Source of the DNA: Flavobacteriales bacterium 33_180_T64 | Lineage (GTDB): Bacteria > Bacteroidota > Bacteroidia > Flavobacteriales > Flavobacteriaceae | DNA: 64,000 bases | Reading direction: 5' to 3' | Assembly (NCBI GenBank): GCA_002162685.1 | Contig: MAAQ01000013.1 | Location: 310,001 to 374,000, forward strand | Shown: positions 58,349-63,721 of the stretch, piece by piece | Layout: every line of letters begins with the position of its first letter | Position numbering within the stretch: position 1 is the first letter of the stretch | Notes under the pieces: generated by a model | Told to the model about the DNA's origin: nothing | The model's database searches: none | What the model saw: only the letters and a program-made list of their open reading frames with translations | Position numbers and translations under genes: made by a program

Positions 58349-59260
58349 ATGCTAAATGTAAAAAATCTTACCTTTTCGTATAATAAAACACCCGTTTTAA
58401 AAGATATCTCTTTTGAAATTAATCCTGGAGAAAACTTTGCTGTTATCGGTGAAAGCGGTTCTGGAAAAAGCACACTTTTAAAAGCTTTATACGGTGAATT
58501 TGATTTGAGTTTTGGAGAGGTTTTTTGGAAAGAAACCGAAATATTTGGGCCAAAACATAATCTTGTTATAGGTTACGATTTTATGAAATACGTTGCTCAA
58601 GAATTTGATTTAATGCCATTTATTTCAGTAGAAGAAAATATAGGAAAATTTCTCTCTAATTTCTTTCCTGAGGAAAAACTAAAACGCACCGCAGAATTAC
58701 TAGAGGTTGTTGAGCTTACTACTTTTGCAAAAACAAAAGTAAAATCCCTTTCTGGCGGACAGAAACAACGCGTAGCTCTTGCTAGAGCACTAGCCAAACA
58801 ACCAGAAATAATTTTACTAGATGAGCCTTTTAGTCATATTGATAATTTTAAAAAACAATCGCTTCGTCGACGTGTTTTTAACTACTTAAAAGAAAAAAAT
58901 ATTACTTGTGTGGTAGCGACACATGATAAAGATGATGTACTCGGTTTTGCAGATCAAATGATTGTCTTGCACAACAATAAAATACAAGCAAACGCGAAAC
59001 CTGAGCAGTTATACTATAACCCAAAAACACCTTTAGTAGCCTCTTTTTTTGGTGAATTTAATATCATAAACAAAGGCATATTTTATGCGCATCAATTGAA
59101 AATAGTTGAAAAATCAAATCTAAAGGCCACTGTAATCCGAAGCTATTTTAAAGGTAATTATTATTTAATTGAAGCGGTTTTAAATAATCAAAATGTCTTT
59201 TTTGAAAACGAAACGAAACTAGAAAACAATCAAAAGGTATTTCTTCAGAAACACTTATAA
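58349..59260 (+). CDS. ABC transporter ATP-binding protein
   Basis: A 303-residue ATPase subunit. Walker A is GESGSGKSTLL (about residues 34-44), the Q-loop AQEFDLMPF, the signature VKSLSGGQKQRVALARALA, Walker B ILLDEPFSHID and the switch histidine in VVATHDKDD. After residue 225 there is a short C-terminal domain unlike a full TOBE repeat. It resembles ATPases of importers for polyamines, sugars or anions, but no permease or binding protein is next to it, so its partner must be elsewhere. Confidence 0.9.
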   Translation: MLNVKNLTFSYNKTPVLKDISFEINPGENFAVIGESGSGKSTLLKALYGEFDLSFGEVFWKETEIFGPKHNLVIGYDFMKYVAQEFDLMPFISVEENIGKFLSNFFPEEKLKRTAELLEVVELTTFAKTKVKSLSGGQKQRVALARALAKQPEIILLDEPFSHIDNFKKQSLRRRVFNYLKEKNITCVVATHDKDDVLGFADQMIVLHNNKIQANAKPEQLYYNPKTPLVASFFGEFNIINKGIFYAHQLKIVEKSNLKATVIRSYFKGNYYLIEAVLNNQNVFFENETKLENNQKVFLQKHL

Positions 59261-59472
59261 ATTTTCTAATCAAAAACTTCCTTTTTAATAAAATAGGAGT
59301 CATTCACTACTGGATAAAACTACTATTTTATTGCTTTTTGATATACTATAAACTTACGGGTTTTCAAAATTTCGAGGTTAAATTAAAAAAAAGAACTACA
59401 AAATTTTGATTTTTAAAAAAAATATAATACTTCGTATTATGGGAGCTGATTTTCTAGGAAAAGAAAAATAAA

Positions 59473-59505
59473 TTTGGAAAATTCAAAAAATAATCTAAAT
59501 ATTTG
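59473..59505 (+). promoter_or_regulatory. Promoter candidate for the leader of the rtcB module
   Basis: TTTG (59473-59476), 21 bases, then AATATTTG (59498-59505), one mismatch from TAnnTTTG. It precedes the 24-codon ORF by 46 bases. Confidence 0.5.
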
Positions 59506-59551
59506 CAACACATTTCAATCAGAATAGAAGTTGAATTAACAATTAGAAACT

Positions 59552-59626
59552 ATGAGTTTATTTATAACATATCAAAACAATCCAAAAGGAATTATGCCTT
59601 TTGTGATGCTTCGTGATTATCGTTAG
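59552..59626 (+). CDS. Possible 24-residue leader peptide
   Basis: ATG at 59552 to TAG at 59624-59626 encodes 24 residues starting MSLFITYQNNPKG and ending VMLRDYR. It lies between a promoter candidate and a terminator-like hairpin that starts 25 bases after its stop, the layout of a leader peptide with an attenuator. There is no run of one amino acid that would name a signal. It could equally be chance or the remnant of a longer gene. Confidence 0.35.
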   Translation: MSLFITYQNNPKGIMPFVMLRDYR

Positions 59627-59651
59627 ATAAACTTTTCAAAATTATAAATGA

Positions 59652-59689
59652 AAAATCCGAAGCTAGTAAAACACTGTTTCGGATTTTTT
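59652..59689 (+). terminator. Terminator or attenuator upstream of the rtcB module
   Basis: AAAATCCGAA / TTCGGATTTT hairpin with a 16-base loop followed by T-rich sequence. It stands 220 bases before rtcB, so either it ends a short RNA or it attenuates the operon. Confidence 0.65.
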
Positions 59690-59908
59690 GTTTTCAGTCA
59701 TTAGCAAGCCTGCTAAGCCATTATCCAAAACAGTAATAATACAATCAGAATGCTATTTTGAATCCAATCAACGTGTTTCAAAATACATTTCAAAAACAAT
59801 TTAAAAATGACTAAAAATATAGCATTTAATCAACGATTTCAATAATTGGGAGTAATTACTGGAATCATTTAAATAACAAAATTTAAATTTTAATGAAACC
59901 AGAATATC

Positions 59909-60990
59909 ATGGGAAAGAAATTAAGCGGAAAAGACTTAATCAAGTTAGGTTTTCCGAAAAACAATAGCATCAATGTGACATTGGGTCAGATTAATCGTTA
60001 TCAGAAACGCGTAAAAAAAGAAAAAATATTAACAGAAGCAAAAAAAGTATTATTACATCCAGAACAGTATAAAGGTGATGGTGTTTGGGGCAAAATAGCC
60101 GAAAGTTTATTAGATCCTGTTATCGTAAAAAAACAAGTATTAAAAACCAATCGTGTTCCATTTCAAATTTATGGGGAAAATGAAATTGAAGATCAAGCCA
60201 AGTATCAGTTATACGACGCTTTAAAATTACCAATTTCTGTGGCAGGAGCTTTAATGCCAGATGCGCATGTAGGTTATGGCCTACCAATTGGAGGTGTCTT
60301 AGCAACAAAAAATACGGTTATTCCTTATGGAGTAGGTGTTGATATTGGCTGTAGAATGTGTTTAAGTATTTATCCAGTAAAAGCCTCTTATTTAAAAGGG
60401 AAAAAGCATCAATTGGAGACTATTTTGTTGGAACACACCAAATTTGGAATGTATGAAACACATAAAATAAAACATGATCACCCGGTTTTTGAGCGAGAGG
60501 AATTTAAAACTATTCCACTTGTAAAACGCTTAAAAGATAAAGCTTATAAACAATTGGGGTCCTCGGGAGGTGGTAATCATTTTGTAGAATTTGGGATCGT
60601 AAATATTCTAGACGCTAACAATGAATGGAATTTACCAATTGGAGAATATTTGGGCGTTTTATCTCATAGTGGTTCACGCGGATTGGGTGCTAACATAGCA
60701 AAACATTATACGTATTTGGCAACAAAACAATGTCCGTTACCAAAACAGGTAGTTTACAATCGGCATCTCATGGCGCTGGACGATTATTATCTAGACGACA
60801 ATGTAAAACCACATTAACGCAAAGTGCTGTAAAAAAAGAATTACAAAAACACGATGTTTCTTTAATAGGAGGAGGAATTGATGAAGCGCCAATGGCTTAT
60901 AAAAACATTAATAATGTCATGAAAAACCAATTAGAATTGGTAGAGGTTGTTGGGAAATTTACTCCTAAAGTTGTAAGAATGAACAGGTGA
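59909..60990 (+). pseudogene. rtcB: RNA ligase RtcB, broken by internal deletion and frameshift
   Basis: RtcB joins RNA 2',3'-cyclic phosphate or 3'-phosphate ends to 5'-OH ends using GTP and manganese. Frame one (59909-60817) carries residues up to about 278 with the metal motifs GVDIGCRMC, SSGGGNHFVEFG and LSHSGSRGLG. Frame two (from about 60742) resumes with SLQSASHGAGR, which holds the guanylylated histidine, and ends KFTPKVVRMNR. Between LPK and TGSLQSASHGAGR about 100 residues of the usual family, including the HRKGAT segment with a metal histidine, are missing and the frame changes. The product cannot be active if the sequence is correct. NTase gene follows 26 bases on. Confidence 0.85.
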
Positions 60991-61016: not shown

Positions 61017-61571
61017 ATGGGAACAAATCATAACATAAAAAGATACGGAGAGCAATGGCCTAGCTATAGAATAAATCAAGGCTTGGATATTTTAAAGCAA
61101 TTAAAAGCATGGATTATTGTTTCTGGAGGTTGGGCATGGCACTTCATGTCGCCAGAAGATCATACGGAGTACAAACATGCACACGATCATAAAGACATCG
61201 ACATTTTTGTGCATCCAAAAAATGTTTCAAAAGTGATGGTGATACTAGAAAAAGAAGAGTTTAAAAAAGTATGGACAAAATATGATCATCTACCAAGTAA
61301 TGAGAATTTTAGACGTTATGAAAAAATAGATTGGTTAGAAACAGGAAAACAGATAAGAGTAACTATAGATTTTTTTGAGTCTAAAACAGTTGACACAATA
61401 ACAGTAAATAACTGGACATTAGTAGAACCTAAAACGCTATTAAGTTATTACTCTAACATTCATTCTAGCGATAAATGTTGGGCTGTTAAAGCAGCGCTAC
61501 TATTAATAGAAAAAGGCGAAAGTCCTATTGGTAGTCTATTGTTATCTAAAAATCCTTTGGAAAAAACGTAA
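61017..61571 (+). CDS. Predicted nucleotidyltransferase in the rtcB-prfH module
   Basis: 184 residues from ATG at 61017; a GTG at 60987 overlapping the rtcB stop is an alternative. The nucleotidyltransferase fold signature is clear: VSGGWAWHF (Gly37-Gly38), HKDIDIF (Asp60, Asp62) and a third acidic residue in RVTIDFF (Asp118). The GGW...DID arrangement resembles the lincosamide/aminoglycoside nucleotidyltransferases (LnuA, ANT(2'')). Its place between an RNA ligase and a rescue release factor suggests an RNA or small-molecule target linked to ribosome damage. No known component of RtcB-PrfH systems, as far as I am aware. Confidence 0.75.
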   Translation: MGTNHNIKRYGEQWPSYRINQGLDILKQLKAWIIVSGGWAWHFMSPEDHTEYKHAHDHKDIDIFVHPKNVSKVMVILEKEEFKKVWTKYDHLPSNENFRRYEKIDWLETGKQIRVTIDFFESKTVDTITVNNWTLVEPKTLLSYYSNIHSSDKCWAVKAALLLIEKGESPIGSLLLSKNPLEKT

Positions 61572-61677: not shown

Positions 61678-62373
61678 ATGGAAATAAAAACAATACAAAT
61701 AACCTCTGGCCGTGGGCCGGCAGAATGCTGTTGGGTTGTAGCTCAAGTTTTAAAAAAGTTTTTAGTAGCAACAAAAAATAGCGCTTTAGATTATAAAATA
61801 TTACAAAGAGAGAAAGGAATTGAAAACATGACATTACAATCGGTTACAATTCAGTTAAAAGGAAAACATCTTGATATATTTTTAAATCAATGGCTAGGAA
61901 CGATACAATGGATAGGTATATCTGTTTTTAGACCTCAACACAAACGTAAAAATTGGTTTATCGGTTTATATGAAATAGAACAGAAACAACAGTTTCAAAT
62001 TAATGAAAAAGATATTACATATCAAGCCACGCGAAGTTCTGGTCCAGGAGGACAACATGTTAATAAAGTAAGTTCAGCTATTAGAGCTATTCACCAACCA
62101 AGTAATGTACAAGTATTGGTTATGGATAGTCGCTCACAACATCAAAATAAAAAAATAGCAAAAATACGCTTACAAGAAAAAGTGAGCCAATTACAATTAA
62201 ATGCATTGCAATCGAGTATAAAAAACCAATGGGAAAATCATTTAAAATTAGAACGTGGTAATCCCATACAAATTTTTAAAGGCTCAGATTTCAAAACAAA
62301 TACTATTGTAAAAACATATAAAAAACAACGTAACGTATTAAAAAACGATTTGAGAGATCAATTAAAAAAGTGA
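61678..62373 (+). CDS. prfH: Peptide chain release factor H
   Basis: PrfH is a short release factor homologue without the codon-recognition domain that frees peptides from damaged ribosomes. The catalytic loop is SSGPGGQHVNKVSSAIRA (Gly124-Gly125-Gln126). Then comes the typical release factor stretch VMDSRSQHQNKKIAKIRLQ, and the basic C-terminal tail YKKQRNVLKND. At 231 residues it fits PrfH and not RF1/RF2 (about 360). Pairing with rtcB is the known genomic context. The TPR gene follows after 24 bases. Confidence 0.93.
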   Translation: MEIKTIQITSGRGPAECCWVVAQVLKKFLVATKNSALDYKILQREKGIENMTLQSVTIQLKGKHLDIFLNQWLGTIQWIGISVFRPQHKRKNWFIGLYEIEQKQQFQINEKDITYQATRSSGPGGQHVNKVSSAIRAIHQPSNVQVLVMDSRSQHQNKKIAKIRLQEKVSQLQLNALQSSIKNQWENHLKLERGNPIQIFKGSDFKTNTIVKTYKKQRNVLKNDLRDQLKK

Positions 62374-63013: not shown

Positions 63014-63721
63014 ATGCCCAACCAAAGAAACAGAGGAAAAAACAGTAATGACGATAGTCTTTTTGGCTCAAAAAATAATCGCCAAAAGTTTAAAGACGCT
63101 ATTGTTGACATGCGGTATTTACTAACTAGAGGCTATGCCGAAAAATCATCGTTGCAACTCGTTGGAAATAAATACCGCTTAAACGTTAGACAACAACAAG
63201 CAATTCAAGGTATGAGTGCATCTCAACAACAAATTGAAAGACGTACTGCTCATGTTGTTTTGTTTGAAAACATACACTCTAAAATCATTAGTATTGACGG
63301 ATTCAATCTTCTTATCATATTAGAAAGCACATTGTCTGGAGCCTTTATTTTTAAAGGTTTAGATAATGCATATCGCGATTTATCTAGTGTTCATGGTAGC
63401 TATAAACGTGTACAACAAACTGAAACAGCGTTGCTTTTGGTTGGTAATCTTCTCAGAAAAAATAAAGTGATTTGGGTGTTTGATAAACCTGTTTCCAATA
63501 GTGGACGGCTTAAAACCTTACTTCGAGAAACGGCAGAACAACATGGTTTTGACTGGGAGATTATTCTTGAGAATAATCCTGACAAAATCTTAGCAGAAAG
63601 TAACCATATTGTAGTAAGCTCTGATGCTTGGGTTTTAGATCGTGCTGAGAATTGGCTAAATCTTAGTGCCTTTTGTATTGAAAATCATATTCCAAATTCA
63701 AATATCATCCAATCTCAGTAA
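63014..63721 (+). CDS. DUF434 domain-containing protein
   Basis: About 235 residues. I start at MPNQRNRGKNSNDDS; the in-frame extension from 62957 would begin inside the terminator. The body resembles the DUF434 family, described in bacteria and archaea, with FKDAIVDMRYLLTRGYAEKS near the start, then a metal-dependent-looking central region (IDGFNLLIILESTLSG; GSYKRVQQTETALLLVG; WVFDKPVSNSGRLK). It is of the kind found in RNA- or nucleotide-processing contexts, but function is not established. Its 3' end overlaps the convergent GreA/GreB-like gene by 17 bases. Confidence 0.85.
   Translation: MPNQRNRGKNSNDDSLFGSKNNRQKFKDAIVDMRYLLTRGYAEKSSLQLVGNKYRLNVRQQQAIQGMSASQQQIERRTAHVVLFENIHSKIISIDGFNLLIILESTLSGAFIFKGLDNAYRDLSSVHGSYKRVQQTETALLLVGNLLRKNKVIWVFDKPVSNSGRLKTLLRETAEQHGFDWEIILENNPDKILAESNHIVVSSDAWVLDRAENWLNLSAFCIENHIPNSNIIQSQ

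What the first reader, a model, noticed from the sequence alone, without database searches (positions are those of the whole stretch)
59909..60990. rtcB is broken by an internal deletion that also shifts the frame
The first frame runs through the family motifs GVDIGC, GGGNHFVEFG and HSGSRGLG to LPK near 60745, then loses all similarity. The other frame resumes at SLQSASHGAGR, which holds the GMP-carrying histidine. The join skips about 100 residues that RtcB proteins keep, including the HRKGAT segment with a manganese-binding histidine. The adjoining NTase, prfH and TPR genes are intact. If real, the ligase half of the ribosome repair pair is lost while the rescue factor stays.
Basis: partly seen in the sequence, partly recalled or inferred. 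Interest (0 to 1): 0.8.

Follow-up and report, generated by a model that had tools for sequence, protein, structure and literature searches.

The report
Broken RNA ligase gene, intact switch
In this flavobacterium-like genome the gene for an enzyme thought to reseal cut ribosomal RNA has lost a 310-letter piece and can no longer work, while its partner genes stay open; the region in front of it looks like a conserved RNA switch that may turn such repair genes on when translation fails.

Summary
Confirmed: rtcB (59909-60990) is 310 bp shorter than each of 14 intact relatives (all 1392 nt). The break lies at 60744-60751 and shifts the frame. About 103 residues are lost, including a metal-ligand histidine and HRKGAT; the GMP histidine survives only out of frame. 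The genome has no other RtcB. NTase, prfH and TPR are open. In the family sample prfH passes its cut-off in 32 of 397 genomes; of the 31 others, 29 keep an intact linked rtcB2 and 2 a distant RtcB nearby. Mis-assembly is not excluded without reads. Broken rtcB-prfH operons are known (PMC1586002), so the break itself is modestly interesting.

Beyond the finding: upstream (59552-59690) lies a conserved attenuator: short leader ORF, hairpin, antiterminator, terminator. Model hits stand before 45 of 45 loci L063-L107 and 29 of 31 family prfH loci, some weak. The leader hairpin covaries strongly; the antiterminator core hardly varies. Nothing passes Rfam's thresholds. Pseudomonas PA5471.1-armZ-prfH is an analogue. 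Likely role, inferred: failing ribosomes leave the leader untranslated, the antiterminator forms, and repair genes switch on.

The parts
58349..59260 (+). ABC transporter ATPase; left flank of the RNA-repair hotspot shared with relatives
   Evidence: PF00005; same neighbour in L186, L187, L191, L193, L167 and L228; in L189 other genes lie between
59464..59509 (+). short conserved stretch upstream of the leader, promoter-like (not tested)
   Evidence: part of the 59410-59744 block, 72-84% identical in six congeners; this piece alone also hits L146, L171, L107 and L109
59552..59626 (+). leader ORF, 24 codons plus stop
   Evidence: tblastn with the peptide: 11 distinct loci including the window at E below 1e-3, weaker ones further off; ORF at a fixed distance from the terminator in 76 of 80 chosen loci, shuffles mean 2.3, max 8
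59580..59607 (+). hairpin A inside the leader ORF
   Evidence: MFE folds; all 6 pairs have two-sided changes in a 38-sequence alignment
59608..59663 (+). antiterminator: leader codons (59608-59618) pair with the 5' arm of the terminator (59654-59663)
59652..59690 (+). intrinsic terminator hairpin with U-run
   Evidence: fold -15.1 kcal/mol, z -5.67; 11 of 11 pairs kept in 14 sequences, 2 with two-sided changes
59894..59908 (+). scar of a deleted upstream gene (called UP here): its start codon and first codons run straight into the sequence before rtcB; about 659 bp missing relative to L063
   Evidence: blastn and printed sequences
59909..60817 (+). rtcB frame A, 302 aa, ending in an out-of-frame tail and stop
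60744..60751 (+). deletion join; 310 bp missing relative to each of 14 intact relatives
60752..60990 (+). rtcB C-terminal remnant in the other frame, with SASHGAGR (GMP histidine)
61017..61571 (+).
   Evidence: 82-83% identical to the copies in L063-L067; no Pfam or NCBIfam hit at E 0.001
61678..62373 (+). prfH, peptide release factor H, open, with GGQ
   Evidence: TIGR03072 222.5 bits; PDB 9mor_A 262.8 bits
62398..62940 (+). TPR protein, open
63014..63721 (+). DUF434-DUF5616 protein; in congeners it sits at or near canonical RtcB
   Evidence: PF18481, PF04256

Best explanation
This is a recently inactivated rtcB2 in an RNA-repair operon (leader attenuator - rtcB2 - NTase - prfH - TPR - DUF434/5616) at a chromosomal hotspot where relatives carry various RtcB cassettes. 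A 310-bp deletion, perhaps helped by a few bases of flanking repeat, removed about 103 residues including a metal-ligand histidine and shifted the frame, so no ligase can be made (read from sequence). The gene upstream is deleted relative to Bizionia, and no other RtcB is found in the genome (shown). PrfH, NTase and TPR remain open and could still release nascent chains from damaged or stalled ribosomes, but 16S rRNA could not be resealed by RtcB (inferred). The operon's switch looks intact: normally a translating ribosome would melt hairpin A and cover the leader codons that pair with the terminator arm, the terminator forms and the operon is off; when ribosomes fail early, the antiterminator forms and the repair genes are read (inferred from anatomy and covariation).
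For: 310-bp difference and frame shift against 14 of 14 references. Lost and kept residues mapped on 1UC2. No other RtcB in G000. Of 31 other prfH genomes in the family sample, 29 keep a linked intact rtcB2 and 2 an intact distant RtcB nearby. Little decay: 1 private change at 163 conserved columns; 42 intact relatives 0-9, median 1. UP gene scar. Attenuator: leader-arm duplex stronger than 95% of shuffles in 70 of 79 loci, 0 of 5000 permutations as good; ORF and duplex together in 67 of 80 leaders against 1 of 150 control terminators; RNAalifold finds hairpin A and the antiterminator unprompted on 38 of 62 leaders, 30 cells with two-sided changes against 6.8 in shuffles; antiterminator in the MFE of 62 of 62 truncated leaders, shuffled control mean 29.9, max 35.
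Against: No reads: a mis-assembly or a mixed population is not excluded. Genes kept open are not thereby shown to be used. The leader peptide shows no significant amino-acid-level selection (codon-position differences 161/170/184, p 0.46; synonymous fraction 0.20 against 0.16, p 0.08), so translation of the leader rests on ORF placement. At equilibrium the full leader folds as the terminator; the switch would need co-transcriptional kinetics, which was not tested. In the antiterminator only 1 of 5 pairs has two-sided changes (2 cells), and on a tree of 69 loci only 3 branches carry a two-sided change at that pair. The 80 leaders were picked by hand from model hits, and 24 of 62, the more divergent, were left out by hand. 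The controls treat related loci as separate. In window rtcB, 18 residues differ uniquely in W against 4 in L065, which might mean longer relaxation than one search suggests.
Confidence: 0.77

Rival explanations
1. The deletion is an assembly or sequencing artefact, or a minority allele, and the living strain has an intact rtcB2.
For: No reads were available; the two halves show almost no decay (1 of 163 conserved columns), as an artefact would also give; 29 of 31 other family prfH genomes keep an intact linked copy.
Against: The join is a clean 310-bp deletion with only a few bases of flanking similarity, too short to collapse a typical assembly graph (general knowledge); the contig is 526,760 bp long and the genome 99.64% complete in 23 contigs; a second, separate deletion hits the adjoining UP gene.
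Confidence: 0.15
2. On the cause (compatible with the best explanation): this lineage no longer meets the relevant ribotoxins; the operon is decaying from its 5' end and prfH, NTase and TPR are next.
For: UP gene deleted, rtcB2 broken, no match to the congeners' WYL regulator (an empty answer) and no other RtcB; operon decay is known elsewhere (PMC1586002). Broken rtcB2 with open prfH also occurs in 4 of 54 prfH loci (L084, L107, L114, L126).
Against: Leader, NTase, prfH and TPR show no disruption; pairwise prfH dN/dS against five relatives is 0.085-0.158, much as between the relatives.
Confidence: 0.45
3. On the cause (compatible with the best explanation): PrfH has been kept for a ligase-independent job, releasing peptides from antibiotic-stalled or damaged ribosomes, so losing the ligase is selectively neutral or even favoured.
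For: P. aeruginosa PA5470 (prfH) was reported to relieve azithromycin-stalled ribosomes (Shi 2018, seen only as a reference title and one sentence in PMC12057347); ligase broken with prfH open and no other RtcB found also in L084 (a metagenome bin of unknown completeness) and Apibacter muscae L107.
Against: In E. coli ATCC25922 deletion of rtcB2 sensitises cells to colicin E3, and the plasmids reported to restore resistance carry rtcB2 alone or with prfH (PMC9223846 abstract, passages and Discussion); rtcB is about twice as long as prfH, so more breaks in it are expected.
Confidence: 0.3
4. The two halves are both made and act together or by frameshifting as a working or regulatory RtcB.
For: The second frame has a start codon at 60730; catalysis-independent RtcAB binding to RtcR is reported (PMC9650030, start of abstract in a search listing only).
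Against: About 103 residues with a metal ligand are absent altogether; no frameshift could restore them.
Confidence: 0.03

Closest known systems
E. coli RtcB2-PrfH module (ATCC25922; truncated in K-12/BW25113)
   Same: rtcB2 close to prfH in one run of genes; window PrfH matches TIGR03072 and solved PrfH structures; truncated operons are known in K-12
   Different: Here only the ligase is broken and prfH is open; there are an NTase, a TPR gene and a leader attenuator; K-12 lost parts of both genes (PMC1586002, PMC9223846 passages)
RFH-RtcB neighbourhoods with TPR, Pol-beta NTase and RFR genes (Burroughs and Aravind 2019, PMC6514570 passages)
   Same: Same kinds of gene (TPR, NTase) around RFH-RtcB; the deleted UP gene may be one of their unknown RFR proteins (not tested)
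   Different: A leader attenuator was not mentioned in the passages read; the ligase is broken here
P. aeruginosa PA5471.1 leader - armZ (RtcB-like) - PA5470 (prfH)
   Same: Leader peptide in front of an RtcB-like and a prfH gene, with proposed transcription attenuation under impaired or stalled ribosomes (PMC12057347 passages)
   Different: Distant phylum; ArmZ is an anti-repressor of MexZ; leader sequences were not compared; the flavobacterial element also precedes TPR and canonical RtcB operons
PDB 9mor/9mq4 and 7sa4 peptide chain release factor H
   Same: Window PrfH matches 9mor_A over 226 residues (262.8 bits) and 7sa4 chain 8 (147.7 bits)
   Different: Structures of the rescue factor only; the papers were not read

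Membership tests
RtcB RNA ligase (PF01139) | one continuous reading frame over the whole profile | tested here: not met
   profile 1-222 in one frame, 343-423 in another; 310 bp missing
RtcB RNA ligase (PF01139) | all metal-ligand residues and the GMP histidine in one protein | tested here: not met
   positions aligned to chain 95, 98, 203 and 234 in frame A, 329 lost, 404 out of frame (roles recalled)
RtcB2-PrfH module | rtcB and prfH in one operon-like run | tested here: met
   order rtcB-NTase-prfH, as in L063-L067
RtcB2-PrfH module | both genes intact | tested here: not met
   rtcB broken, prfH open
PrfH (TIGR03072) | score above the curated cut-off; GGQ motif | tested here: met
   222.5 bits against 166.65; GGQ read in the translation
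ribosome-mediated transcription attenuator | short leader ORF ahead of an intrinsic terminator | tested here: met
   76 of 80 chosen loci; shuffles mean 2.3, max 8
ribosome-mediated transcription attenuator | mutually exclusive antiterminator and terminator | tested here: met
   both use the CGAAG arm; (by prediction and comparison, not by experiment)
ribosome-mediated transcription attenuator | leader is a translated peptide under coding selection | tested here: inconclusive
   codon-position p 0.46; synonymous test p 0.08
ribosome-mediated transcription attenuator | read-through rises when translation is impaired | not testable with these tools
   needs reporter or Term-seq data
PA5471.1 attenuator (Pseudomonas) | homologous leader | not tested
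   analogy from PMC12057347 passages only
known Rfam family | match over the gathering score | tested here: not met
   4 matches up to E 1 in 59300-60000 (best E 0.002, minus strand), all below gathering scores

The most novel reading that the evidence does not exclude
A structured leader-ORF attenuator (hairpin A, antiterminator and terminator around a 22-28-codon ORF) is a widespread ribosome-failure sensor in Flavobacteriaceae and neighbouring groups such as Empedobacter, Myroides and Fluviicola. It drives a modular RNA-repair regulon (rtcB2-prfH, canonical RtcB, the TPR protein, and operons with Band-7 or PcfJ-like genes), answering how these repair systems know that ribosomes are damaged. 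In this genome the sensor survives although the ligase it serves is gone.
Probability: 0.6. Interest if true: 0.75.

Novelty: new variant of a known kind. Interest (0 to 1): 0.52.

Why it matters
The broken gene gives a natural case of PrfH in a genome where no RtcB is found, useful to ask whether peptide release without resealing is of any benefit. The attenuator matters more: it offers a concrete, testable answer to how RtcB-PrfH repair operons sense ribosome damage in a group where the paper searches made here showed no such report, and a sequence tag (leader plus covarying hairpin) with which to find new members of a ribosome-damage regulon. If the Pseudomonas PA5471.1 leader proves unrelated, two lineages would have arrived separately at leader-controlled RtcB/PrfH genes.

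Tried and rejected
Considered and rejected: a programmed frameshift (about 103 residues are simply absent); a lineage-specific short RtcB (0 of 42 loci tried; 0 of 31 other family prfH genomes); replacement by a second RtcB (none in the genome); long-standing decay (although one search shows 18 against 4 unique residues); peptide-level conservation of the leader (not significant); Rfam matches (all below gathering). R1 scores alone are not specific below about 45 bits (reverse-strand matches reach 40 bits and 47 bits in L157), so the 95 of 249 genomes must not be read as 95 leaders. A bias of broken ligase over broken prfH (4 of 54 loci plus the window, against none noticed with broken prfH, which was not searched for systematically) is not significant given the gene lengths. 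No prfH remnant was found in the 7 rtcB loci without prfH that were checked. No tool gave reads, other strains of the species, or a name for the window genome.

Full report
Observation. Frame A of rtcB (59909-60817, 302 aa) covers RtcB profile positions 1-222 and a second frame (60730-60990) covers 343-423. Against 14 intact relatives (L004-L006, L063-L069, L071, L072, L089, L091), all 1392 nt, the window gene is 1082 nt, so exactly 310 bp are missing and the frame shifts. The join is best placed at 60744-60751; the exact base is ambiguous because the two flanks share a few bases. Among the closest intact copies are L063 and L064 (Bizionia, 90% and 87% over the matched part of frame A) and L065 (Lacinutrix, 89%). 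The alignment to P. horikoshii RtcB (1UC2), counted by position, puts the residues aligned to D95, C98, H203 and H234 in frame A, H329 (HHNFA) in the lost stretch together with HRKGAT, and H404 (SHGAGR) in the other frame. Ligand roles are recalled.

Own genome. The window lies in a 526,760-bp contig of a 3.75-Mb, 23-contig genome, 99.64% complete. The RtcB family finds only the two fragments at E 0.001. NTase, prfH and TPR are open; PrfH passes its curated cut-off and matches solved PrfH structures.

How unusual. TIGR03072 passes its cut-off in 32 of 397 family genomes including this one. For the other 31, regions were fetched: 29 have an intact linked rtcB2 and 2 (G058, G273) lack it but hold an open distant RtcB within about 3 kb. 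Another RtcB was found in the genomes of L114 and L126 but not of L084 and L107 (completeness not given there). The two samples overlap in part. Broken rtcB-prfH operons were described in 2006 (PMC1586002, passages), and the K-12/BW25113 operon is truncated (PMC9223846: abstract, passages, Discussion). So the break is a further case of a known kind of loss.

Age. In window rtcB, 1 of 163 columns at least 97% conserved among 42 intact relatives has a private change; the relatives themselves show 0-9, median 1. This argues for a recent deletion, or for an artefact. A relative-rate count points the other way in part: 18 residues unique to the window against 4 unique to L065 in rtcB, with 6 against 5 for prfH, 6 against 5 for TPR and 14 against 5 for NTase.

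Locus history. In congeners the same site, next to the same ABC gene, can hold a WYL regulator, the TPR gene, a phosphoesterase, a Band-7 gene, canonical RtcB and DUF434-DUF5616 (L187). G425 (L167) has ABC - WYL - leader - UP - rtcB2 - NTase - prfH - TPR - Band-7 - canonical RtcB. The window keeps ABC, leader, NTase, prfH, TPR and DUF434-DUF5616. Its UP gene is gone, with a scar just before rtcB (about 659 bp missing relative to L063); the WYL protein finds no match in the genome (an empty answer, weak on its own). Of the 23 genomes of the genus sample only the window's own has this prfH at E 1e-40, so the cassette is patchy.

Attenuator. The stretch 59410-59744 upstream of rtcB is 72-84% identical in six congeners, where it precedes the TPR gene of an RtcB operon, and a longer stretch is about 75% identical in Bizionia. 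It holds a 24-codon ORF (59552-59626) and a terminator. A model built from 14 sequences hits on the right strand within 1.8 kb upstream of rtcB2 in 45 of 45 loci L063-L107 (E up to 0.03, four above 0.01; L067 partial at a contig end) and in 1 (L126) of the 11 further loci given, and upstream of rtcB2 or prfH in 29 of 31 other family prfH loci (weakest E 0.1; none credible in L170, L171). Of 12 further RtcB loci (L007-L018) 7 have a well-placed hit of 31-44 bits, untested further, and L012 and L015-L018 do not; 6 distant loci (L109, L110, L112, L115-L117) have none credible. Scores below about 45 bits are not specific by themselves, so I tested the anatomy on 80 hits chosen by hand (copies of the same genome that I recognised, and L067, left out).

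Tests of the attenuator. A leader ORF of 22-28 codons starting and stopping at fixed distances from the terminator is present in 76 of 80; shuffles give 2.3 on average, 8 at most. Pairing between the end of the leader and the terminator 5' arm beats 95% of dinucleotide shuffles in 70 of 79 distinct loci, and none of 5000 permutations of partners is as good. ORF and pairing hold together in 67 of 80 leaders (ORF 76, pairing 71) and in 1 of 150 control terminators sampled from 157 in the same loci (ORF 20, pairing 29). RNA ending at that arm shows the antiterminator and a hairpin just upstream in 62 of 62 non-redundant leaders; with the upstream part shuffled, the antiterminator appears in 29.9 on average, 35 at most (the hairpin has no such control). 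RNAalifold on 38 of the 62 finds both helices by itself; the 24 left out by hand were the more divergent ones. The pair count gives 30 cells with two-sided changes against 6.8 in shuffles and at most 13 with slid partners; hairpin A carries 28 of the 30 (6 of 6 pairs), the antiterminator 2 (1 of 5 pairs, the core nearly invariant). On an rtcB2 tree of 69 loci the pair next to CUUCG:CGAAG shows three two-sided changes; 55 of 69 leaves are paired there, and some mismatches come from my pattern choosing the wrong CTTC in leaders with GCTTCAGG. The terminator has two pairs with two-sided changes. Against: the peptide itself shows no significant coding constraint, which fits RNA-level constraint but leaves translation unproven, and the full leader favours the terminator at equilibrium.

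Regulon. Of the 30 loci returned for the best hits, 23 including the window's own precede the TPR gene, prfH, UP or rtcB2 on the right strand; 3 precede a 436-472-aa gene (only the L217 copy was scanned, a PcfJ match; kinship of the three not tested; in L228 the gene is followed by rtcB2 and TPR); 1 (L212) precedes a Band-7 gene; 3 have no such gene. Three of the four TPR loci read at longer range also have a Band-7 gene downstream (L226, L230, L232 but not L231).

Mechanism. Shown: gene order, deletion, loss of residues; leader anatomy and covariation by prediction and comparison. Inferred: a ribosome that translates the leader melts hairpin A and covers the CUUCG codons, so the terminator forms and the operon is off; if ribosomes are cut, blocked or few, the leader is untranslated, hairpin A and the antiterminator form, and the repair genes are transcribed. 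P. aeruginosa offers a parallel with PA5471.1, armZ and prfH (PMC12057347, passages). In this genome the same signal would still raise NTase, PrfH and TPR, with no ligase to finish the repair.

Literature. PMC library searches for PrfH with RtcB2, RtcB with prfH and related terms, RtcB with leader peptide and attenuation, flavobacteria with leader peptide and related terms, PrfH with F. johnsoniae, PrfH alone, RtcB with antiterminat and Bacteroidetes with leader peptide listed no paper whose title or shown abstract start reports this leader; most listed papers were not opened. A flavobacterial transcriptome paper mentions leader-peptide attenuation upstream of amino-acid biosynthesis operons in the passages seen (PMC9723704). 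Most subscription papers are not in that library. TPR and NTase partners of RFH-RtcB are described in PMC6514570 (passages).

Noticed in passing
window 59552-59690: Conserved leader-ORF attenuator with hairpin A, antiterminator and terminator upstream of RNA-repair operons; no Rfam match above threshold.
   Followed up: yes
window 59894-59908: Scar of a deleted upstream gene (UP) whose start codons run straight into the rtcB start; an intact copy is in L063 (to 6013).
   Followed up: partly
window 63014-63721 and L186, L187, L188, L189: DUF434-DUF5616 gene lies at or near canonical RtcB in congeners (5 of 22 have a match, one a fragment, all 5 among the 12 with canonical RtcB; about 6 kb apart in L188); here it stands without any RtcB.
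   Followed up: partly
L107 6727-6729 (Apibacter muscae), L114 6394-6396, L084 6880-6882: In-frame stop codons in otherwise well-kept rtcB2 genes beside an open prfH.
   Followed up: partly
L226, L230, L231, L232: Leader-like element before a solitary TPR gene, with a Band-7 gene downstream in three of the four; suggests a wider ribosome-stress regulon.
   Followed up: partly
L228 (G148): Same hotspot beside the ABC gene, with leader - 453-aa gene - rtcB2 - TPR and no prfH.
   Followed up: no
L155 3819-3958 and 8391-8527: Two leader-attenuators in one locus (G215), one of them before a PcfJ-like gene.
   Followed up: no
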